DNA from: an uncultured Alphaproteobacteria bacterium
GTDB taxonomy: Bacteria; Pseudomonadota; Alphaproteobacteria; HIMB59; GCA-002718135
DNA length: 41,251 nt
NCBI GenBank assembly: GCA_902541215.1
Contig: CACBPV010000010.1
Coordinates: 1 to 41,251 of the forward strand
Reading direction: 5' to 3'
The notes beneath the pieces were generated by a model. That model was not told the DNA's origin. It was given only the letters and a program-made list of their open reading frames with translations, and did no database searches. This document shows, one piece after another, positions 4,714 to 14,638 of the stretch (positions within the stretch are counted from its first letter, which is position 1; each line of letters opens with the position of its first letter). The translations under genes and the position numbers were made by a program.

Positions 4714-4808
4714 AGTTAATTATTTAAATAATATAGTAAATTTGAAAAAGCTATAGTAAAAAAATATTCTTATAATTTTTTTTATTAACTAAAATTTAGA
4801 ATTGTTAA

Positions 4809-4853
4809 GGAGAGATGTGAGAGCGGTTTAATCAGCACGCTTGGAAAGCTCGT
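4809..4853 (+). pseudogene. tRNA-Ser 5' half, degraded (probable attL)
   Basis: This stretch lines up with the first ~45 nt of the intact tRNA-Ser at 7404. It shares GGAGAG at the 5' end, a D-arm-like GAG-CGGTT segment, and the anticodon stem and loop GCACGCTTGGAAAGC, identical over 15 nt and including the GGA anticodon. After the anticodon stem the match ends: there is no variable arm, no TTCGAAT T-loop and no acceptor 3' strand, so it cannot make a functional tRNA. It is most simply the half-site left when an element recombined into the anticodon region of the gene. Confidence 0.75.
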
Positions 4854-4920
4854 CTTGTAGCGCGACTAAAGTTACTTAATTCCTATAAATTCTGTATTTC
4901 TATAACGATAATAAGAAAGT

Positions 4921-4942
4921 GATCACACATTGATCACACTTA
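4921..4942 (+). repeat. Left copy of 22-bp island-end repeat
   Basis: This contains two tandem 11-bp units beginning TGATCACAC. The same 22 bp recurs in the same orientation at 7321-7342 with one mismatch, exactly 2400 bp away. This copy lies between the tRNA-Ser fragment and the integrase start, 13 bp before its ATG. Tandem short repeats placed on both sides of a tRNA core resemble arm-type integrase binding sites of attP. An operator shared by int and the right-hand gene is the alternative. Confidence 0.7.
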
Positions 4943-4955
4943 GAAAGGATAAAAT

Positions 4956-5159
4956 ATGGCTACGATTAGAAAATTACGAAAACGCTGGCAAGCTATCGTT
5001 AGAAGAAAAAGGATACACGTCAGTAAAACTTTCTGGAAAAAATCAGACGCACGCCTTTGGTCAGATAAAACAGAAGCACAAATTGAAGTTGGTTCTTATC
5101 TAGGAACAAAAATAGTTCTTCCTTTTGACCCAATCATTAACTTATTCTTGGTTCTCTGA
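4956..5159 (+). pseudogene. Tyrosine integrase, N-terminal remnant
   Basis: About 47 codons encode a sequence typical of the extreme N-terminal arm-binding domain of phage-type tyrosine integrases: M-A-T-I-R-K-x-x-K-R-W-Q-A, then R-R-K-R, S-K-T-F-x-K-K-S-D-A-R-L-W, and E-A-Q-I-E-V-G-S. The family is normally 350-400 aa, with the catalytic R...HxxR...Y in the C-terminal half; all of that is missing. The frame runs into the 3' end of the opposite-strand gene at about 5097 and stops after 20 unrelated residues. The start is well supported by an AAAGGA ribosome-binding site 7 nt upstream. It was presumably functional until its 3' part was lost. Confidence 0.8.
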
Positions 5160-6334
5160 CTAACTAACAATCCTTGAATAATTTTATCTCTTTTGGGATT
5201 AGGTGGTGCCCAACCGAAACCATTCCCGAAATCAAAATAGCCAATACCAGTTGAAGTATATTTCCATGTAGCTTGGCCAGTTGCATTTTGTTGCGCTAGC
5301 GCCTGTTGTTTTTCTTCTTCCGTTGGTTCTTTTACTCCACCTTTTGTTTGCATTTCCTGAATTGCTAAAACTATTTCTCCCATTAATTCCTTATCATCTT
5401 TAATTTCTTCTATATCTTCTAGATTCATAGGACCAGTGCCTATAATAGATGGAAGGTATCTACGCACACAGTCATCAACATCTTTTCTTTCAATACCGCA
5501 CCCTAAAGATATGGCAAATTCGTCGAATGAGGATTTTTTCATTGAGATTGCTACACCACAACTTATTATATTCCCAGTTGTATAATCAAAACACATCCTT
5601 CTACTATTTTGGTCTATTCCATATGATTCTTTATAGGCGAAAGCTATTTTTTTAAATTGTTCAAAATTAATTTCTTTATCAGGTAAACAGTCACCGCTTG
5701 AACCTAAATTAATAAAGTAAACATCTAAGTTATATTTTTGACAATATATTTTTCCTAAAATTTTATTTTCTAAATTACCCTTTACCCATTCTCCAGTTTT
5801 TTCACTTCCATTTCTTAAAGCTAAAGTTCCATGCCCATGATATTTTCCTAGTTCCCAATTACCAACATACTTTTCATTTAGTTTAGTTTGTATTCCCTCG
5901 CCTTGTTTTTTCCCTTTTACCCATTGTCCACGATAAATAATTTGATTCTTTGTATTATATGCGAAAGTAAAAAATCCTTCTCCATGATAATAATATTTAT
6001 CATCTTCAAATTTTTTAAATTCACCAATATATATCTTTCCATTGGAAAGATATTCTATTTTACCATGACATTCATTTGGAGAACTATTAGCTATTTTTTG
6101 GGTAATAATAGTTTTAGGTTCTTTTGGACAACCTCTTTCATCTTTACGACAAGTTTTAGTTTTTTCTTTTTTTATTTTGCATTTAGGTAATTCACTTTCA
6201 AAAGTAGATTTAAATATCTTTAATTCATCCTTATATATTTTATTACTTTCTTTTTTAGCGCTCACGCTTTCCGCACTCACCACCATAGGCGTTAAGAAAA
6301 CAATTAATCCAACGAGTAGTATGAATTTCCTCAT
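5096..6334 (-). CDS. Exported MORN-repeat protein with island-specific C-terminal domain
   Basis: This is a 412-aa predicted periplasmic or secreted protein of unknown function. I chose the ATG at 6334 because it opens a clear signal peptide (M-R-K-F, hydrophobic core, V-V-S-A cleavage near residue 21) and lies behind a GGTAGGA ribosome-binding site. The start 24 bp upstream would place a hydrophobic basic tail before it. Residues 52-90 are Cys-rich. Residues about 95-190 hold four or so MORN-like repeats (Y-x-G-E/G-x-W, G-x-G-x). Residues 269-412 are 132/144 identical to the end of the neighbouring 6388-7278 protein and contain a conserved Cys279/Cys289 pair, an aromatic/Gly-rich F-D-F-G-N-G-F-G-W and the terminal R-T-I-F-V-P-R. 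The last 64 bp overlap the integrase remnant in antisense. Confidence 0.8.
   Translation of the reverse strand: MRKFILLVGLIVFLTPMVVSAESVSAKKESNKIYKDELKIFKSTFESELPKCKIKKEKTKTCRKDERGCPKEPKTIITQKIANSSPNECHGKIEYLSNGKIYIGEFKKFEDDKYYYHGEGFFTFAYNTKNQIIYRGQWVKGKKQGEGIQTKLNEKYVGNWELGKYHGHGTLALRNGSEKTGEWVKGNLENKILGKIYCQKYNLDVYFINLGSSGDCLPDKEINFEQFKKIAFAYKESYGIDQNSRRMCFDYTTGNIISCGVAISMKKSSFDEFAISLGCGIERKDVDDCVRRYLPSIIGTGPMNLEDIEEIKDDKELMGEIVLAIQEMQTKGGVKEPTEEEKQQALAQQNATGQATWKYTSTGIGYFDFGNGFGWAPPNPKRDKIIQGLLVSQRTKNKLMIGSKGRTIFVPR
5097..5413. repeat. 317-bp direct repeat, copy 1 (3' end of exported-protein gene)
   Basis: This is nearly identical to 6389-6705, offset 1292 bp; I count only scattered substitutions. 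It covers the last ~105 codons of the 5096-6334 gene, where the two proteins differ at just two residues. Homology begins at the stop codon and drops abruptly after the I-E-E-I-K-D-D coding segment. The left edge coincides with the point where the integrase homology ends. Confidence 0.92.
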
Positions 6335-6351
6335 TATGATTATCCTACCAC
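6331..6351 (-). promoter_or_regulatory. Conserved ribosome-binding/start segment, copy 1
   Basis: Reading the minus strand, GTGGTAGGATAATC leads into the ATG of the MORN-protein gene. The same 21 bp, with two differences, precedes the other exported-protein gene at 7275-7295. Sequence further upstream and downstream is unrelated, so the shared piece is just the translation-initiation region (GGTAGGA as Shine-Dalgarno). It supports the internal start codons chosen for both genes. Confidence 0.7.
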
Positions 6352-6387
6352 CAACCAAGGAGATTGTTAAGTTAAGATATTTTTTAG

Positions 6388-7278
6388 CTATCTAGGAACA
6401 AAAATAGTTCTACCTCTTGACCCAATCATTAACTTATTCTTTGTTCGCTGGCTCACTAATAATCCGCTAATAATTTTATCTCTTTTGGGATTAGGCGGTG
6501 CCCAACCGAAACCATTCCCGAAATCAAAATAGCCAATACCAGTTGAAGTATATTTCCATGTAGCTTGGCCGGTTGCATTTTGTTGCGCTAAGGCTTGTTG
6601 TTTTTCTTCTTCCGTTGGTTCTTTTACTCCACCTTTTGTTTGCATTTCCTGAATTGCTAAAACTATTTCTCCCATTAATTCCTTATCATCTTTAATTTCT
6701 TCTATTTGTTCCAAAGTCATTAAACCTGTTCCAATAACTGAGGGTAACCATCGCCTTACACAATCATCGAGATCTGCCCGATCAATTGCACAACCTAAAG
6801 ATATTGCAAATTCATCATATGAGGTTTCTTTTTCATTATTTCTATTTTTACTCACGCATTGATATTCACCTTTGTATTCAATATATTCGTTATTCTCTCC
6901 TTTTGTGTTGCATTTTAAAGATAAATATTTGAATAGATCACTGTCTTGATTTTTACTGGCTGTTTCAAAATATTGTCTTTCACCAAAGGGTTTATATTTC
7001 CCATTTGGCAAGTATCCATTAAGTGACAAATATCTACCATAGGTAATTTCTTTAGAGTTTTTGCAATAATTTTCCTTTATTTTACCAGTATTAATCCTGC
7101 CTCCTAATCCATTGACGTTTGAAACACTACCTGAATCGTTTTCACAAAAACAAAATACATAATTAACGTTAGTATCATTAGTTACGCAATAATAGCTTGT
7201 TAAATCTTCTTCTTGTGCTGTCGAAAAATTTGAAAAAAATAAAAACAATAATCCAAGAATAAAAAAAATTATTTTCAT
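6388..7278 (-). CDS. Exported protein, variable Cys-rich N-half plus shared C-terminal domain
   Basis: This is a 296-aa predicted exported protein of unknown function. The start at 7278 opens a typical signal peptide (M-K-I-I-F-F, long hydrophobic stretch, F-S-T-A-Q cleavage near residue 21) behind the same GGTAGGA start segment as its neighbour. Residues 22-150 contain about seven cysteines and a Y/G/N-rich stretch but no recognisable domain, and no similarity to the MORN region of the 5096-6334 product. From residue 153 to the end it matches that product at 132 of 144 positions, including the paired cysteines (C-x9-C). The two genes are co-oriented, 53 bp apart, and look like duplicated modules with exchanged N-terminal parts. 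Confidence 0.78.
   Translation of the reverse strand: MKIIFFILGLLFLFFSNFSTAQEEDLTSYYCVTNDTNVNYVFCFCENDSGSVSNVNGLGGRINTGKIKENYCKNSKEITYGRYLSLNGYLPNGKYKPFGERQYFETASKNQDSDLFKYLSLKCNTKGENNEYIEYKGEYQCVSKNRNNEKETSYDEFAISLGCAIDRADLDDCVRRWLPSVIGTGLMTLEQIEEIKDDKELMGEIVLAIQEMQTKGGVKEPTEEEKQQALAQQNATGQATWKYTSTGIGYFDFGNGFGWAPPNPKRDKIISGLLVSQRTKNKLMIGSRGRTIFVPR
6389..6705. repeat. 317-bp direct repeat, copy 2
   Basis: Partner of 5097-5413, in the same orientation. It is the 3' third of the 6388-7278 gene, beginning at its stop codon. Recombination between the copies would delete 1292 bp, removing one gene and leaving a single chimera. The much higher identity here than in the adjoining coding sequence points to recent duplication or gene conversion. 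Confidence 0.92.
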
Positions 7279-7295
7279 CACGATTATCCTACCAC
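7275..7295 (-). promoter_or_regulatory. Conserved ribosome-binding/start segment, copy 2
   Basis: Second copy of the 21-bp initiation region described at 6331-6351, directly before the ATG at 7278. The sequence upstream is different and AT-rich (TATAATATATATT on the minus strand at about 7300-7312 could serve as a -10 region). Confidence 0.65.
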
Positions 7296-7320
7296 GATAA
7301 ATATATATTATAAATAAAGC

Positions 7321-7342
7321 GATCACACTTTGATCACACTTA
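7321..7342 (+). repeat. Right copy of 22-bp island-end repeat
   Basis: This matches 4921-4942 at 21 of 22 positions in the same orientation and again contains two tandem 11-bp TGATCACAC units. It lies between the start of the last cargo gene and the intact tRNA-Ser, so the pair brackets the cargo. Interpretation as P/P' arm-type sites is inference. Confidence 0.7.
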
Positions 7343-7403
7343 CGTTACAAAGAATTCCTATTAACCACTAATTTAATATGTTAAATCATAGGAAATATAA
7401 GTA

Positions 7404-7493
7404 GGAGAGGTGGCCGAGTGGTTGAAGGCGCACGCTTGGAAAGCGTGTGTAGTTTCAATACTACCGAGGGTTCGAATCCCTCTCTCTCCGCCA
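7404..7493 (+). tRNA. tRNA-Ser (anticodon GGA)
   Basis: This folds as a complete class II tRNA. The acceptor GGAGAGG pairs with TCTCTCC (one G-U) and is followed by discriminator G and an encoded CCA. The D arm is present. The anticodon stem CACGC/GCGTG carries loop TTGGAAA, giving anticodon GGA (reads UCC/UCU, serine). There is a long variable arm typical of serine tRNAs, and the T arm GAGGG-TTCGAAT-CCCTC. It forms the right boundary of the island. If the island integrated at the anticodon region, the 5' half and promoter of this gene came from the element. Confidence 0.97.
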
Positions 7494-7588
7494 TAAATTA
7501 TGATTATAATAAAATTATTTTAACTAAAACTATAAAAGATTTATTGAGATATTTTTTTTATTTTTTGATTATTTTTAAATACTCAAAT

Positions 7589-8362
7589 TTAAATTTCAAT
7601 TACTTTTTCATGAATTTTTCTATCAATATATAAAAAGTTTTGTAATTTATTATTTTTATAAAATAATTTTTTAATTAATTTTGGTAAAATCAAATTTAAA
7701 AATTTTGTGTTAATCTTAATTGCTTTTCTATTTCTTTTTTTACAAAAATTGTCAAAAATTTCCCATAGAAACAAACTTTCTTTACCTTGGATATTATAAG
7801 TAGACTCACCTACAAAATCTTTTGAAATAATATCTAATATATATTTTGATAAAAGATTTAATTTTACAGGTGAATACAAATTACCAGGATAAATCATTGG
7901 ACATATACCCATGCCAAATAAATTTAAATTTTCAAATAATCGATTGCTAATATTATATGATTCATCAATTATAAGTGATGGTCTTATTATTATGACATTA
8001 TTTTTTTTTAAAGAACTCTCTGCAAATTTTTTAGACAATGTATATGGATCATTTAGCATTGGATTTTTTACATTTATAGAGCTTATATGAATAAATTTAG
8101 TAAATTTTAAATCTTTAATACTTAATAGAATATTTTTTGGTAAATATTTGTTAATATAGAAATCATTTTTAGTAGTAGGATTTATACTTGCGGCACTATT
8201 AATAATTACATTGTATTTCACTTTACTTATATCATTAAGAAATATATTTATTTTTTCTGTACTTCTTAAATTATAACACTCTACATCAAATTTTTTATCA
8301 TTAAGTATTCTTAATAATTCTTTTCCCAAAAAGCCTGTAGAACCTGTAAGAGCAATTTTCAA
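7589..8362 (-). CDS. NAD-dependent epimerase/dehydratase (SDR)
   Basis: This is a 257-aa extended-type SDR protein. The dinucleotide motif G-S-T-G-F-L-G is at 7-13, an N-S-A-A motif near 55-58, S-S-I-N at 94-97, and the catalytic Y-x-x-x-K at Tyr107/Lys111. It is shorter than typical nucleotide-sugar epimerases (310-350 aa), with a reduced C-terminal substrate domain, and resembles dTDP-4-dehydrorhamnose reductase-like proteins only in general fold. It overlaps the start-side neighbour (radical SAM gene) by 4 bp, so the two are co-transcribed. A role in modifying a surface sugar is inferred from context. Confidence 0.8.
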   Translation of the reverse strand: MKIALTGSTGFLGKELLRILNDKKFDVECYNLRSTEKINIFLNDISKVKYNVIINSAASINPTTKNDFYINKYLPKNILLSIKDLKFTKFIHISSINVKNPMLNDPYTLSKKFAESSLKKNNVIIIRPSLIIDESYNISNRLFENLNLFGMGICPMIYPGNLYSPVKLNLLSKYILDIISKDFVGESTYNIQGKESLFLWEIFDNFCKKRNRKAIKINTKFLNLILPKLIKKLFYKNNKLQNFLYIDRKIHEKVIEI

Positions 8363-9693
8363 TTATCTATTAACTTTCTTTTTAAGTAAAAAAACAACCA
8401 TTTTGGATTTAAATAGTAACTAAGATAAGCTTTATTTAGTAAGTTTCTAACTTCAGAAGTATTTAAATTATTATGATTAAATATTAGCTTCCATTGATTA
8501 AAATCTTCATATTTATCTGTTAAAATTCTATCTTTATATTCTTCGAATACTGGAGTACCAGGATATGGTGTAAAAATACTAAATTGTGCATACGTTGATA
8601 ATATTTTTTTTGAATAGTTAATTGTTTTTAAACATGTTCTAAGAGTATCTGTTGGTTGACCCAAAATATACATAGATTTAACCTTTACATTATTTTCTTC
8701 TAATTTTTTAACTTTATAAATCTGTTCATCAAATGCAATTGTTGTTCTTTTTGAATCTAAAAGCACATCTGCATCTCCTGATTCTATACCCACGTAAACA
8801 AGTTTAATACCACTTTTTTTAAAAAGAGATATCATCTCATCATCTATATTTTTAAGATGTGTTTCTATACAAATATTAAATTTTATTGTTGATGAGGCTA
8901 ATTTTTCTAATAATTCTGTTGTATGTTTTTTATTTATTGAGAAAACAGGATCTCTAAATATAAAATTTTTAGTTCCAAACTTTTCATGCCAATACTCCAT
9001 TTCTTTTACTATTTTATCACTATTTCTTAATCTTAGCTTTCTTCCTTGTTGTTTTGGATATGTACAATAATAAAAACATGAATATGGACATCCTCTTGAT
9101 GCATTAATAGGAATGGTAGAGCCCTTGCCTAACAATTTCATTACTGGTTTGATTTTTTTAAAAACAATATCCCAAGCTGGATAATTTAAATCATCTAAAT
9201 TATAATTATGTTTATGATAAATAACTTCAGGCAAGTTATTAAAATTATCAAAATTTTTTAATTTAAAATCTTTAAAATAAAATTCACTTTCACCTGATAT
9301 AACTTTTGCACCATAGTCAGTATATAATTCTGGCTTTGAACTAGCAAATGGACCAATGACAAAAATATTTTTCTTTTTTGCATTCAATTTTTTAATAACT
9401 TCTATCTCAGATTCATAACAAACTATAGATGAAGGAATAACATACAAATCATAATCTACTTCTTTTTCTAAAGTTCTGGAGTATTTTACATCAAAATTAT
9501 TATTATGAAGTTCTGCAATAGCATGAGCGGCAAAGAGAGGTGGATAATCAATTGTTTTTTTTATATATAAACTTAACAATTTTAGAAAAAAATTATCCCC
9601 ATAATCATTAGCAGTACCATAACCGCCATTTTGATCTTTTGATATTCTATAATTTTTATTTGGATATATGTCTAAAAGAAGAATTTTTAACAT
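8359..9693 (-). CDS. Radical SAM protein, B12-binding-like N-terminus, CX3CX3C motif
   Basis: This is a 444-aa protein. Residues 1-145 look like the cobalamin-binding-like domain that precedes many radical SAM enzymes (P-P-L-F-A-A-H-A near 51-58; G-P-F-A-S and G-E-S-E-F motifs). The radical SAM core follows: S-R-G-C-P-Y-S-C-F-Y-Y-C places Cys202, Cys206 and Cys210 as CX3CX3C, one residue longer than the canonical CX3CX2C, then downstream motifs F-R-D-P-V-F, I-E-T-H and V-G-I-E-S-G. The reaction is unknown; relatives act as methylases or in lipid and cofactor chemistry. It is encoded upstream of, and overlapping, an SDR gene within a glycan block. The divergent GT2 gene starts 35 bp away. Confidence 0.83.
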   Translation of the reverse strand: MLKILLLDIYPNKNYRISKDQNGGYGTANDYGDNFFLKLLSLYIKKTIDYPPLFAAHAIAELHNNNFDVKYSRTLEKEVDYDLYVIPSSIVCYESEIEVIKKLNAKKKNIFVIGPFASSKPELYTDYGAKVISGESEFYFKDFKLKNFDNFNNLPEVIYHKHNYNLDDLNYPAWDIVFKKIKPVMKLLGKGSTIPINASRGCPYSCFYYCTYPKQQGRKLRLRNSDKIVKEMEYWHEKFGTKNFIFRDPVFSINKKHTTELLEKLASSTIKFNICIETHLKNIDDEMISLFKKSGIKLVYVGIESGDADVLLDSKRTTIAFDEQIYKVKKLEENNVKVKSMYILGQPTDTLRTCLKTINYSKKILSTYAQFSIFTPYPGTPVFEEYKDRILTDKYEDFNQWKLIFNHNNLNTSEVRNLLNKAYLSYYLNPKWLFFYLKRKLIDN

Positions 9694-9728
9694 TTTATTG
9701 TATAATATATTAAAACAGAATCTTTAAA

Positions 9729-10811
9729 ATGAAAAAAAATATCTCCATAATTATTCCAACATTTAATGAAAAAGATAATATTATTGAGTTATATAAAGAA
9801 ATCAAAAATAACTTAGTTATATCAAAAATATCCTGGGATGTTATTTTTGTTGATGATAGCAATAATAATGACACAGCAAATATTATAAGAAAGCTTCAAA
9901 ATAGCGAAAATAATGTTTTTCTTATAAAAAGAATTGAAAATAGAGGATTGTCATCTGCTTTAATTCAAGGAGCTCTCTCAACTAATTCAGAATATGTTTT
10001 ATTTATGGATGGCGATTTACAGCATCCTCCAGATACAATTTTATCATTGTATAATGAAATAAATAAAAAAAATTATGATTTAGTCTCGGCCAGTAGATTT
10101 TTAAATGAGAATAAATTACTAGAACAGAAAAGATATAAAGCATCTTCTTTTGTAAACTTTCTTTTAAGAAAATTATTTAAAATAAATTACTCAGATGTAT
10201 TGACTGGTTTCTTTATAATGGATAGAAATTTTTTTATAAATAATTATAAAAAATTTTCTAATATAGGATTTAAATTACTTTTAGACATAATATTATCGAC
10301 TAAGAAAACAATTAAGTATAGTGAAATTTCTTTTGAATTTAAAAAAAGATATTCTGGAGAAAGTAAATTAAATAGTAAAGTATTTATTGATTTTATTATA
10401 CTTATTATAGATAAATTAATTGGTAAAATAATACCAGGAAGGTATTTTATTTATTCTTTAATTGGATCACTTGGAATAATATTTCAATTAATAACTTTTT
10501 ATATTTTATCAAATTTTATTAATTTTAATTATTCACTACTTATCTCAATTATATTAACAATATATTTTAATTTTGTTTTAAATAATGAATTCACTTACTC
10601 AGATTTAAAAAAAAAAGGCACTAAATTTTATAAGGGATTGATTAGATATTATTTTTTCTGTTCATTTGGTGCTGTTTTTAACTTTATCTCTGCAAAAATA
10701 ATTTTTGATAATCTATCTAATATTTATATTGCAGTTGTAATAGGTGCATTTGTAGGTAGTATTTGGAACTACTCAATGAATACATCATATAATTGGAAAA
10801 TTAAAAAATAA
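9729..10811 (+). CDS. GT2 glycosyltransferase fused to GtrA-like membrane domain
   Basis: This is a 360-aa protein. Residues 1-230 form a GT2 domain: S-I-I-I-P-T-F-N-E start, V-D-D-S at 41-44 and D-G-D at 94-96 with the L-Q-H-P-P-D motif of polyprenyl-phosphate glycosyltransferases. Residues about 238-355 have four membrane segments and match the GtrA family (G-R-Y-F-I-Y-S-L-I-G-S, N-F-V-L-N-N-E-F-T-Y, F-G-A-V-F-N). The fusion suggests loading of a sugar onto undecaprenyl phosphate together with membrane translocation of the product. It is the only plus-strand gene in this block and converges on the 602-aa membrane protein, 5 bp apart. Confidence 0.87.
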   Translation: MKKNISIIIPTFNEKDNIIELYKEIKNNLVISKISWDVIFVDDSNNNDTANIIRKLQNSENNVFLIKRIENRGLSSALIQGALSTNSEYVLFMDGDLQHPPDTILSLYNEINKKNYDLVSASRFLNENKLLEQKRYKASSFVNFLLRKLFKINYSDVLTGFFIMDRNFFINNYKKFSNIGFKLLLDIILSTKKTIKYSEISFEFKKRYSGESKLNSKVFIDFIILIIDKLIGKIIPGRYFIYSLIGSLGIIFQLITFYILSNFINFNYSLLISIILTIYFNFVLNNEFTYSDLKKKGTKFYKGLIRYYFFCSFGAVFNFISAKIIFDNLSNIYIAVVIGAFVGSIWNYSMNTSYNWKIKK

Positions 10812-10816
10812 TAATT

Positions 10817-12625
10817 TTAATATAATATATTTTTATTCATAAAATTATAACAGTCACTCTCATTTTTATTTTTCTTATACAAATTATAAGAATAAAAATC
10901 ATATTTTTCTCCAAGACATACCTCTTTACCATCAGGTATACACGGGAAATCTATTTTACCACACATAAGAATTGCTTCCTTCCCATTATTAAATATTAAT
11001 TTATCAGTTTTGAGTCTTTTGTTATAATCTGTATTATCAAGTATTATTTTAACGAAATCTTTGTTTTCAAATAATTCATAATTATTGGGCCACGGAAAAT
11101 TTTCGAATTTTTGATTATTTATATCATCGTAAATTCTGTTAAAATTTTTTAAATTTAAATAACTTATTGCTACACAAATTAATATAAATAAATTGAGATA
11201 ATTTACTTTTTTCAAAAACTTTTGATTCAAAAAACTTATTATTAAGCTAAATAAAATAATAAAACAGAAATATCCACCATATCTCATTTGTGGTGATAAA
11301 AAGAACCACAAAATTGTAATTAATACAATTGAAATTAATAAAAGATAATTATATTTTTTTGAAATTTTTTCGCTATCAATTTTTCCATTTTTTTTAATAC
11401 TTAAAATAAGTAGTACAAATAAGCTTAATAGAAATAAATTTACAATTTTTTTATAATTTGGATCCATTAACCAATATTTTCCCCAGAATAATGGACTAGT
11501 TGCAAAATAATTATTATAATTATAAAAATTTTCCCTTTCTAGATTTTTCCATACAAATTTGTTTTTTAAATTAAATGAATCTTTGGCATAGAAAGGCCAG
11601 CCTTTTGAGTCAGATTTTAACTTATTATATTTTTGATCTGTTACTTTTAAATTAGATGACCAAGTAAGTTCTTTAATACATAAAGTACTCACAGGATAAA
11701 TTAAACACCCACTATTTATTATATTTTTAGTAATAAAAAAAATAAATGTAAAAACTGTAAATAATATTAATTTTTTATTATTCATAAAAAAGTTTAAAAT
11801 AGTTTTATATTTCGTAATTAGAATAATAATAAATAGTGGTCCAATAATTACGCTATTAAATCTTAAAATTATTGCTAAAGTAAAAAGTATAAGTATTTTT
11901 GCATATATATCATTTTTTTTATCATCTAAAAAAATTGAATAAGTTAAACAAAATATTAAAATTAACAATAATTGAGGTGGTAACATTGTTCCAAAATCTC
12001 TTAATTTAGTAAAAGATACAATGCTTAAAAATAAAACTACAAAATAAAAAATATTAAATCTTTCAAATACTTTTTCAATTAAATAACTTAAATAAAAAAT
12101 ATAAAAAATTAATATGGGAACAGAAGAACTATTTTCAATTAAATTATTTACATTAAAAAGAATAATAATGTCATAAAGACTGTTAGTAGAAAAAGCTAAA
12201 GTATTATTTATGTTTACTACACCAAATATAATTTTTGATGAAGTTAAATAATTCATATACGGCTGATAGTAAAAGTAAAAATCCTCGTTATTTTCTGAAA
12301 TTATTCCAAGTAATGAAAATAATAATAGTGTTAAATAAAAAATAAATAATGATTTTAATTTAAAATTTTTATAAATTGTAAATATTATAAAAAATATTAA
12401 TCCAATTAAAAAAACGATAATAATAATAAATTCATTTATATTGCTAAAAAAGTTTATAACTGTTGAGATATTATATAATATTAAAAATCCAAATAAACCA
12501 ATAATACCAATTTCTTTAAAATTTGCTTTATTGTTAAAAAAAAGTATTTTACCAAACTGACCGTAGCCAATAATCATCATTGATGATAAGAAATAAAATA
12601 TTAAGATGATGAGTAATTCAAGCAT
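10817..12625 (-). CDS. Large polytopic membrane protein, glycan-associated
   Basis: This 602-aa protein has about a dozen predicted membrane helices spread over residues 1-490 and a soluble C-terminal region of about 100 residues with several cysteines. Near the N-terminus is G-Y-G, then N-E-D-F-Y-F-Y-Y at about 110-118; later W-P-F-Y-A and P-Q-M-R-Y-G-G. The first 200 residues resemble the truncated protein at 1-635. This architecture fits a large integral-membrane family linked to surface polysaccharides (GT-C- or polymerase-like), but I cannot assign a reaction. It lies 30 bp downstream of the TPR-methyltransferase gene. Confidence 0.75.
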   Translation of the reverse strand: MLELLIILIFYFLSSMMIIGYGQFGKILFFNNKANFKEIGIIGLFGFLILYNISTVINFFSNINEFIIIIVFLIGLIFFIIFTIYKNFKLKSLFIFYLTLLLFSLLGIISENNEDFYFYYQPYMNYLTSSKIIFGVVNINNTLAFSTNSLYDIIILFNVNNLIENSSSVPILIFYIFYLSYLIEKVFERFNIFYFVVLFLSIVSFTKLRDFGTMLPPQLLLILIFCLTYSIFLDDKKNDIYAKILILFTLAIILRFNSVIIGPLFIIILITKYKTILNFFMNNKKLILFTVFTFIFFITKNIINSGCLIYPVSTLCIKELTWSSNLKVTDQKYNKLKSDSKGWPFYAKDSFNLKNKFVWKNLERENFYNYNNYFATSPLFWGKYWLMDPNYKKIVNLFLLSLFVLLILSIKKNGKIDSEKISKKYNYLLLISIVLITILWFFLSPQMRYGGYFCFIILFSLIISFLNQKFLKKVNYLNLFILICVAISYLNLKNFNRIYDDINNQKFENFPWPNNYELFENKDFVKIILDNTDYNKRLKTDKLIFNNGKEAILMCGKIDFPCIPDGKEVCLGEKYDFYSYNLYKKNKNESDCYNFMNKNILY

Positions 12626-12655
12626 GAATTTAAAATATAATAATATTATATTGAT

Positions 12656-14638
12656 TTAGTTTATTTGTTGACACCAAAATTGATACATACCAGCAAAAAT
12701 TCTTTGATTTTTATTTTCAAAGCTTTCCCATTTTTTGAGTTCATAAAGGTCGTTAGGGTTATTAAAAATATTTTTAAATTTCTCAACAACAAATTTGTCT
12801 TCAAAACCTACAAATTTTAAATTTAATTTTTTCATAATTTTATTTAATTTAGGAATAGTATATCGATGTTCTTTAACATGAAATAATAGATCTCTTACTC
12901 CACTTAAAGAATAAAAATCAGGGCTATATTTAATATTATTCCAATAGGATTTTTCATTAGATAAAATTTCATTTCTAAAATTAATTATACTTTTCTTATG
13001 AGTTTCTATTTTGGATTTAATAATATGCATTCTTATATCAGCTATATTTTTTCTTGCTTTTTCACTGTATAATCCAATGAGCATTAAACCATGATTTTTT
13101 AGATTTTCTTTTAGCACTTTCCATCCTTTTTCTGGATTATCCATGTGGTGTAAAACTCCTACTGATTCAATAATGTCAAATTTTTTGTTAAGTCTTTTTA
13201 AATCTAATAAATCGCCTTGAATAAATTTAATATTTTTGAAACCAATTTCTTCAGCTTTTCTTTTAGCATAAGACAGACTATTCATACTAAGATCTAAAGC
13301 GTATATGTTAGCTCTTTTATATTTTGAAGCTGTTGTAATAACATGTTGTCCTGTGCCACATCCAGCAATAAGAATATCTGGATTACTAGAAAAATTTATT
13401 TTTTTTAAATCAATATTTAAGGATATATCATTTATTACATCTTTAATTTCTCTTTCATTAATACTTAATCCCAAGTTAGTCCATCTTGGATAAGGATTCT
13501 CCTCATATTGATTTCTGACTTTTACAGAAATTTTATTTTCAATTTTTGAAATTGATTGTATCTTTTTACTTAAATTTTTTTCAATTTGGAAATTTTTAAT
13601 TTGTAGATTATATACTTGAGACAAGCTTTTTTTATTAGCTATATTGTTTGCCCAAGTAAAACTATTTAAAGGAGCATAACAACTTAAACATAAAATTTCT
13701 AAATCATTAATTTCTTGATTATTTTTATATTTTGTCTCAATTGTATTTTTAAGTTTTTCCAAACTTTGTTCTTCTTTTTCTGAAACAAAATATACGTATT
13801 CATTAAGAAAACATTGTATGGATAATGAAGTTGCAAATTTAGTAAATAATTTATTAAAATTTAATGAATTAATTTGATTTAATAATTCTTTTCTAATTTT
13901 TTTAAAATTACTTTCAATATAGTAACTAGGAATAGGGCAAACTTTCATGAACTGATTAAGAAGTAAATTATTACTAAGCCCATCTACTATTTTATCAAAA
14001 TTTGTAAGAAATAATTTATTATTTACTAATTCCAAATAATCTTTTAAATCTGTGTTTAAGTATAATGCATTAATTACATTAGCAGCAATTGCATTAGGTC
14101 TAACAATTTTGCTTTCATTTAATAGATGTAATAAAAATTTATTAATATATTTATTTTTTTCCTCTAATGTATAATGTTGAAGAACCCCACCAAGATTATA
14201 GTAAGCTCTTTTATAATTTGGGTTGATGATTAATGTTATAATATAATTTTCTAATGCTTTTCTATTCCAACCCTTATTTCTATATATGTTTCCTAAATTA
14301 TTATATGCTTTAAAATAATTTTTATCTACATCTATAACCTTTTTGTAATTTTTAATTGCCTCATCTTGATCATTTAATTTACTATTAATATTTGCCAAGT
14401 TATAAAAACCATCAGCAAATTTAGAATTTAATTTTATAACTTTAGTGAATAAATCTTTAGCTAAACTGTAATTTTTAAGCTCTGTTTGTATAACGCCTGT
14501 TAGATTATTAATTAATAGTGAGTTAGGATATTCTTTTAATAGTTTCTGTGATAACTTAAGAGATTTTTCTAGTTTTTTGTTATTAAATAATCTTATTGTT
14601 TCTTCAATTATTTTCTTATCAGGTTCTTGTTTAATCAT
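12656..14638 (-). CDS. TPR-repeat / SAM-dependent methyltransferase fusion
   Basis: This is a 660-aa soluble protein. Residues about 8-160 form four TPR units, recognisable from A-x-x-x-Y/F repeats such as D-G-F-Y-N-L-A-N and A-Y-N-N-L-G-N-I-Y. A middle region of unclear nature follows, including Q-Y-E-E-N-P-Y-P-R-W at 377-386. A class I methyltransferase domain then has I-A-G-C-G-T-G-Q-H at 424-432, A-L-D-L-S as motif II, and G-V-L-H-H-M-D as post-motif. Fusions of this kind are frequent in AT-rich marine alphaproteobacteria and may modify a protein or a glycan; the substrate is unknown. It starts next to the end of yejF but is probably a separate function. Confidence 0.82.
   Translation of the reverse strand: MIKQEPDKKIIEETIRLFNNKKLEKSLKLSQKLLKEYPNSLLINNLTGVIQTELKNYSLAKDLFTKVIKLNSKFADGFYNLANINSKLNDQDEAIKNYKKVIDVDKNYFKAYNNLGNIYRNKGWNRKALENYIITLIINPNYKRAYYNLGGVLQHYTLEEKNKYINKFLLHLLNESKIVRPNAIAANVINALYLNTDLKDYLELVNNKLFLTNFDKIVDGLSNNLLLNQFMKVCPIPSYYIESNFKKIRKELLNQINSLNFNKLFTKFATSLSIQCFLNEYVYFVSEKEEQSLEKLKNTIETKYKNNQEINDLEILCLSCYAPLNSFTWANNIANKKSLSQVYNLQIKNFQIEKNLSKKIQSISKIENKISVKVRNQYEENPYPRWTNLGLSINEREIKDVINDISLNIDLKKINFSSNPDILIAGCGTGQHVITTASKYKRANIYALDLSMNSLSYAKRKAEEIGFKNIKFIQGDLLDLKRLNKKFDIIESVGVLHHMDNPEKGWKVLKENLKNHGLMLIGLYSEKARKNIADIRMHIIKSKIETHKKSIINFRNEILSNEKSYWNNIKYSPDFYSLSGVRDLLFHVKEHRYTIPKLNKIMKKLNLKFVGFEDKFVVEKFKNIFNNPNDLYELKKWESFENKNQRIFAGMYQFWCQQIN

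What the first reader, a model, noticed from the sequence alone, without database searches (positions are those of the whole stretch)
5096..7278. Paired exported proteins with swapped N-terminal halves and a shared C-terminal domain
Two neighbouring genes encode exported proteins that match at 132 of 144 C-terminal residues and in a 21-bp initiation segment, yet have unrelated middles (MORN repeats in one, a Cys-rich stretch in the other). In the last ~105 codons they differ at two residues and the DNA is almost identical. I do not recognise the shared domain (Cys pair, F-D-F-G-N-G-F-G-W, R-T-I-F-V-P-R end). The pattern is that of a module family in which a constant 3' domain and constant start are joined to exchangeable exported segments, as in antigen or toxin diversification.
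Basis: partly seen in the sequence, partly recalled or inferred. Interest (0 to 1): 0.72.

Follow-up and report, generated by a model that had tools for sequence, protein, structure and literature searches.

The report
Exported proteins with exchangeable C-terminal tails
In a small DNA insert at a transfer-RNA gene, a marine bacterium carries two proteins, probably exported, with different bodies but nearly the same end, and related proteins from elsewhere show that bodies and ends of this family have been recombined repeatedly; what they do is unknown.

Summary
I compared 49 proteins, window pair included. They combine varied bodies, a Cys-containing module M (37 of 49) and one of several short C-terminal tail classes. 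Of 71 pairs with homologous bodies, 33 carry different tail classes. The window's MORN body (99% identical in P0012) carries another tail subtype there. The pair lies in a 2.6-kb insert at tRNA-Ser(GGA) with a 5'-half tRNA copy, 30-nt end repeats and an integrase stub. One relative has no insert, one has only the ends, and one has the same head with other cargo, including MORN proteins. A homologue in G018 lies beside a full integrase at tRNA-Gly. The shared start box is a leader that also stands before other genes. Antigen or toxin function is not shown. My functional reading, exported cargo with a constant docking end, is inference.

The parts
4808..4858 (+). Copy of the 5' half of tRNA-Ser (left end of the insert); 15-nt exact core at 4835-4849
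   Evidence: 75% identical over 51 nt to 7403-7453; exact core; same half in the intact tRNA-Ser of G021
4913..4942 (+). Left copy of the 30-nt end repeat (GATCACAC-N-TTGATCACAC)
   Evidence: 90% identical to 7313-7342; similar sites near other tRNA-Ser inserts
4956..5095 (+). Tyrosine-integrase stub, about the first 46 codons; the frame then runs into the antisense of the WB tail
   Evidence: 34% identical to residues 2-54 of the L003 integrase, E 7.5e-4; DNA 96% identical to the G021 head over window 4808-5083
5096..6334 (-). WB: MORN body + M + tail F, 412 aa
   Evidence: MORN above Pfam's cut-off; module limits
5276..5539 (-). WB module M (LGCG...DDCVRR, helical in the model)
5099..5275 (-). 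WB tail T, class F
5099..5413 (-). WB side of the homogenised tract (last 105 codons)
   Evidence: 15 of 315 nt differ from WA
6332..6349 (-). Leader box before WB
   Evidence: longer shared leader
6388..7278 (-). WA: Cys-motif body + M + tail F, 296 aa
   Evidence: no Pfam match
6568..6831 (-). WA module M
6391..6567 (-). WA tail T, class F
6391..6705 (-). WA side of the homogenised tract (last 105 codons)
7276..7293 (-). Leader box before WA
7313..7342 (+). Right copy of the 30-nt end repeat
   Evidence: a single copy joins both ends in G025
7404..7493 (+). Intact tRNA-Ser(GGA), insertion target
   Evidence: no insert at the homologous place in G053

Best explanation
WA and WB are cargo of a small integrative element, now without a working integrase, at tRNA-Ser(GGA). 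They belong to a family of probably exported proteins built from exchangeable parts: a signal-peptide-like start, a variable body (MORN, Cys-motif and others), a Cys-containing helical module M, and a short C-terminal tail T of several classes. New proteins arise when recombination between copies joins another body to a resident M+T, or another tail to a resident body. In this genome the 3' third of one gene was recently copied over the other (gene conversion), so both now end alike. Inferred function: the body does the variable job in the periplasm or at the surface, and M+T is the constant part that docks or retains the protein at the envelope, tail classes fitting different partners. Shown from sequence: anatomy, element context, body-tail mosaics, and empty and differently filled sites in relatives. 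Inferred: export, direction of the conversion, how the insert moved, and the docking role.
For: Sharp change from 68% to 95% DNA identity at about codon 105 before the stop, and loss of similarity at the stop. P0012: same body at 99%, M 84%, tail 81%. 33 of 71 homologous-body pairs differ in tail class, e.g. P0015/P0047 with 88% body identity over 208 aa but tails F and B. M and T identities correlate weakly, r 0.24, among 18 proteins. G+C is 36-37% in M+T and head but 27-28% in both bodies. Element ends, no insert in G053, ends only in G025, same head with other cargo in G021. Intact element of the same geometry in L054. Homologue beside a full integrase inside a 51-bp tRNA-Gly repeat in L003.
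Against: The docking role has no direct evidence: M+T has no recognised fold or family, and its fold was barely tested. Only a stub of the integrase remains, so present mobility is not shown. The family was found in only 2 of 162 genomes of the order, and genomic context is known for just two loci; for the other proteins only the protein was seen. None in IMG/VR, phage or plasmid records. Bodies may share a small Cys motif. The M+T of the window and of L003 are diverged (79-82% DNA) although a core stretch of the two genomes is 98.7% identical, so exchange between these two loci is not recent.
Confidence: 0.5

Rival explanations
1. Variation of a surface-exposed protein: the body is the part seen by phages, grazers or competitors and is replaced by recombination with other copies, as in antigenic variation; M+T is only the constant framework.
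For: Varied bodies on a common end; the site lies among polysaccharide genes; conversion tract between neighbours.
Against: Only two copies were found in the window's genome, 74% complete, and no store of silent partial copies. Tails vary too. Surface exposure is not shown.
Confidence: 0.2
2. Polymorphic toxin or bacteriocin-like cargo: the body or tail is toxic or binds a receptor, and parts are exchanged in competition.
For: Modular exchange of parts and small exported-type proteins on mobile elements.
Against: No toxin or immunity family was recognised in WA or WB, and no small partner gene lies between or beside them in the insert.
Confidence: 0.1
3. Ordinary paralogues with neutral gene conversion: recombination shuffles parts because the DNA is similar, and no functional modularity is involved.
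For: Conversion tract within one insert; fusions to NeuB (P0021) and to a glycosyltransferase-like start (P0046) look accidental.
Against: Open frames with class-specific tails recur on many contigs, and body limits recur at the start of M or T.
Confidence: 0.15
4. Assembly or amplification artefact: the repeated 3' ends were misjoined.
For: Fragmented genome (65 contigs, 74% complete); repeats promote misassembly.
Against: The two tracts differ at 15 sites. WA-like proteins (98%) lie on two other contigs of 12,730 and 2,702 bases. The same architecture recurs in many database proteins.
Confidence: 0.05

Closest known systems
Additive flexible genomic islands: a tRNA as insertion target for gene cassettes (Alteromonas PMC4119200; Methylophilaceae fGI-2 PMC10872708; passages seen)
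   Same: Cargo at a conserved tRNA, delimited by copies of part of the tRNA, absent or different in relatives.
   Different: Here one unit of 2.6 kb with an integrase stub head, a 5'-half tRNA repeat and cargo of one mosaic protein family.
Tycheposons (Prochlorococcus; described in PMC10872708, passages; original paper not seen)
   Same: tRNA border, tyrosine recombinase, cargo.
   Different: Much smaller than the 4-200 kb given there; recombinase reduced to a stub.
Phage satellites and similar integrative elements with integrase and primase/helicase-type genes (general knowledge)
   Same: The related intact element L054 has a phage-type integrase and a DUF5906 protein.
   Different: The window insert has neither; no relative of WA or of the L054 protein was found in IMG/VR.
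Polymorphic toxins and antigenic-variation genes (general knowledge)
   Same: Constant and exchangeable parts joined by recombination.
   Different: No toxin, immunity or silent-copy store recognised; here the C-terminal end is shared and the body varies, with the tail exchangeable too.
C-terminal sorting tags such as PEP-CTERM or the type 9 secretion C-terminal domain (general knowledge)
   Same: Different exported bodies joined to a shared C-terminal end.
   Different: No NCBIfam or Pfam model matched WA; several unrelated tail classes follow the same M.
MORN-repeat proteins (Pfam PF02493)
   Same: WB body holds MORN repeats above the curated cut-off.
   Different: MORN is one of several bodies; M and T are not part of that family.

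Membership tests
MORN-repeat protein (WB body only) | Pfam PF02493 score above the curated cut-off | tested here: met
   26.1 bits against 22.5
tRNA-targeted additive island / integrative element | Lies at a tRNA gene | tested here: met
   tRNA-Ser(GGA) 7404-7493
tRNA-targeted additive island / integrative element | Part of the tRNA repeated at the other end | tested here: met
   51 nt at 75% with a 15-nt exact core; imperfect, but the same half stands in G021's intact tRNA
tRNA-targeted additive island / integrative element | Absent from, or different in, the same place of relatives | tested here: met
   G053 none, G025 ends only, G021 other cargo
tRNA-targeted additive island / integrative element | Complete site-specific integrase in the insert | tested here: not met
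   Only a stub of about 46 codons; one search found no match in G000 at E 1e-10
Tycheposon | tRNA border and tyrosine recombinase | tested here: inconclusive
   tRNA yes, recombinase a stub; not filed as a member
Phage satellite | Packaging or occurrence in virus particles | tested here: inconclusive
   No relative of WA in IMG/VR or phage records; pattern-based scans miss distant relatives
Polymorphic toxin system | Recognised toxin domain and adjacent immunity gene | tested here: not met
   None recognised in WA or WB; undescribed toxins are not excluded
Curated C-terminal sorting-tag family | Match to a curated model | tested here: not met
   No NCBIfam match for WA, WB, P0020, P0035 or P0047 at E 0.1; no Pfam match for WA at E 1
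Known fold for M+T | Structural match to a solved protein | tested here: inconclusive
   Matches lie in the MORN part (residues 79-186); M+T barely tested
Integron cassette array | IntI integrase and attC sites | not tested
   No IntI or attC model was run

The most novel reading that the evidence does not exclude
A natural mix-and-match export kit: on tRNA-anchored mini-elements, a common leader and signal peptide express exchangeable bodies that are coupled through M to exchangeable tails. The tail is a docking tag that fits the protein to the host's envelope, so any body can be displayed in a new host, and shared DNA (head, leader, M+T) is the handle for recombination.
Probability: 0.25. 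Interest if true: 0.78.

Novelty: new variant of a known kind. Interest (0 to 1): 0.56.

Why it matters
Small mobile inserts of small-genome ocean bacteria carry many unnamed, probably exported proteins. A family in which body and tail are exchanged in nature shows which parts are units, gives a direct way to ask what the constant end binds, and helps to explain why such genes look like orphans. The locus also shows one cargo site in several states (no insert, ends only, filled, filled differently) within one genus.

Tried and rejected

I first took the similarity of tails at the tRNA-Ser and tRNA-Gly loci as a sign of recent transfer between genomes. The last 240 nt of WB and the L003 gene agree at 215 of 240, but the whole M+T matches are 79-82%, while a 4.3-kb core stretch of the two genomes is 98.7% identical. 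These are diverged copies; dropped. I first read the 5'-half tRNA copy as decayed host tRNA. G021's intact tRNA has the same half, so it is an exchanged half; the crossover history is left open. The leader could be a Shine-Dalgarno box or an extended -10 promoter; the data do not decide. The likeness of the Cys motifs rests partly on segments picked by motif; unselected bodies gave 2.4%. A first tail classifier missed most F tails; one search replaces it. Tail classes F and B may be distantly related (hhalign 35%), so independent classes may be fewer. In one search, P0001 was dropped as identical to WA; near-identical proteins (P0002, P0003, WA) were kept, so pairs are not independent; M was found by a motif and set by hand for P0029; 8 further differing pairs involve a protein without a recognised tail and are not in the 33.

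Papers: passages only of PMC10872708, PMC10734472 and PMC4119200; otherwise search listings. I did not search print for the protein family, which has no name. The clade of the host was not identified beyond the record title of one relative.

Full report
CHECK OF THE OBSERVATION. The two genes are WB (5096-6334, minus, 412 aa) and WA (6388-7278, minus, 296 aa). C-terminal identity is 132 of 144 residues. The last 105 codons differ at 2 residues and 15 of 315 nt (11 codons synonymously, 2 not); the 42 codons before differ at 40 of 126 nt. Similarity stops at the stop codon. WB carries MORN repeats above Pfam's cut-off; WA matches nothing.

MORE COPIES. Searches of about 5.8 billion proteins gave 29 (WA), 33 (profile of 29 sequences; only the 7,992 best candidates were scored) and 29 proteins (P0020) at E 0.001 or better, overlapping. 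I compared 49, window pair included. M (about 88 aa, around LGCG...DDCVRR) is present in 37 of 49. Tails: F (GNGFG...) 30, C (WVDTRS...) 11, B (YDPILEKHLNSRGW) 4, D 1, E 1, none recognised 2. F occurs without M in 10, C without M in 1. A start holding VFLTP is seen in 11 of the 34 proteins P0001-P0034. Bodies include MORN (P0007, P0040, P0043), a DnaJ fragment below Pfam's cut-off (P0036) and many unknowns.

EXCHANGE. P0012 has the WB body at 99% over 243 aa, but M at 84% and tail at 81%. P0015 and P0047 share 88% over 208 aa of body and carry tails F and B; P0004 and WA share 70% over 125 aa and carry B and F. Of 71 pairs with homologous bodies, 33 have different tail classes and 8 more involve a protein without a recognised tail; the pairs are not independent. 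Among 18 proteins with M and tail F, M and T identities correlate weakly (r 0.24). G+C is 36-37% in M+T and in the element head, 27-28% in both bodies, 27.1% in the window. I conclude that body, M and T are separable in evolution and that the 3' third of WA and WB was homogenised recently. The direction is not known.

THE MIDDLES. Both bodies hold a small Cys motif. Segments picked by motif gave 91% profile probability, controls below 1%; whole bodies gave 2.4%, best alignment on the same motif.

THE ELEMENT. Left of WB lie a 51-nt copy of the tRNA-Ser 5' half, a 30-nt repeat and an integrase stub; right of WA lie the second 30-nt repeat and intact tRNA-Ser(GGA). In G053 the homologous glycosyltransferase gene is followed at about 240 bp by tRNA-Ser, without an insert. 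In G025 the left end runs into the right end through one repeat, without cargo. In G021 the head is 96% identical over 276 bp although the flank is 77.5% over 1.8 kb, and the cargo is a 148-aa protein with a hydrophobic start and two MORN proteins. An intact element of the same geometry is L054: a 42-bp 5'-half repeat beside a full integrase, a DUF5906 protein, and intact tRNA-Ser (anticodon gct) at the far end. The homologue in G018 (L003, named record) lies beside a full integrase at tRNA-Gly inside a 51-bp tRNA repeat.

DISTRIBUTION. The C-terminus was found in 2 of 110 genomes of the family and 2 of 162 of the order (profile A1 likewise). Profile A1 found it in 1 of 385 sampled genomes of the class, the window's own. 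A pattern-based scan of GTDB contigs gave one locus. None in IMG/VR, phage records or plasmids. As far as held genomes show, it is a rare accessory family; for most of the 49 proteins the host is not known.

THE START BOX. GGTAGGATAATCNNNATG with up to one mismatch occurs at 26 places in 18 of 110 genomes of the family; the reversed control at 3. Of the 26, 15 open into an ORF of 90 aa or more (WA, WB and the L003 homologue among them); 11 do not, one of these cut by a contig end. Most of the 15 begin with a hydrophobic stretch; they look mostly unrelated, but I did not compare them systematically. A longer form, CTTAACAATCTCCTTGGTTGGTGGTAGGATAATC...ATG, recurs with few changes in several. It is a leader of various cargo genes, not a mark of this pair.

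STRUCTURE. With 32 sequences AlphaFold gives WB residues 271-412 (M+T) ten-residue means of 63-92: helices, then a tail of short strands and two helices; residues 18-193 are below 50. The WA model is weaker in the tail. Fold searches matched the MORN part only; M+T was barely tested.

MECHANISM, SHOWN AND INFERRED. Shown from sequence: mosaic proteins, a homogenised tract, an insert with alternative cargo. Inferred: export; arrival by an integrase (the resident one is a stub, so an earlier complete copy or one acting in trans); the tail as docking part. Docking rests only on the constancy of M+T against varied bodies, the cysteines and the exported-type start; it is the weakest step.

NOVELTY. 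tRNA-anchored cargo islands are known (passages). The tail-exchanging family has no curated model in the libraries searched; I did not search print for it. I rate it a new variant of a known kind.

Noticed in passing
3' side of tRNA-Ser(GGA) in same-genus genomes, e.g. L119 1967-6764, L122, L127, L134: The 3' half of tRNA-Ser recurs in tandem at about 0.4-2.6 kb spacing: 19 of 102 genomes gave more than one match. Units hold one or a few genes; the same 353/354-aa ORF (alcohol-dehydrogenase-like by recall) stands at or next to such units in five loci, and a 111-aa small transporter-like ORF in two. Integron-like arrays with a tRNA-derived site.
   Followed up: partly
L037-L047 and other loci: 11 of 41 integrase matches in the family cover only the N-terminal 46-120 residues, beside a tRNA in the loci fetched. 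Inserts with an integrase stub as head recur at tRNA-Gly, often with an exact 51-bp tRNA repeat at the other end.
   Followed up: partly
window 6332-6371 and 7276-7293; L041, L047, L049, L057-L082: A conserved leader (GGTTGGTGGTAGGATAATC...ATG) stands before many cargo genes; Shine-Dalgarno box or extended -10 promoter undecided.
   Followed up: partly
L136 tRNA-Ser 2484-2573 against window 4808-4834: G021's intact tRNA-Ser has the 5' half that in the window is the extra copy, so tRNA halves have been exchanged between elements and hosts.
   Followed up: partly
P0021, P0046, P0036: The tail is fused to a NeuB fragment in P0021; P0046 joins a glycosyltransferase-like start (below cut-off) to a family body; P0036 holds a DnaJ fragment (below cut-off) in its body. 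Short contigs, so chimeras are possible.
   Followed up: no
L131 3121-4502; L040 5247-8589; L060: MORN proteins recur as genes at these tRNA-linked sites or behind the leader, with and without a hydrophobic start.
   Followed up: no
window 7494-14638: G053 has an ABC-transporter gene directly after tRNA-Ser, where the window has sugar-related and other genes in between, so the 3' side of the same tRNA is also variable.
   Followed up: no
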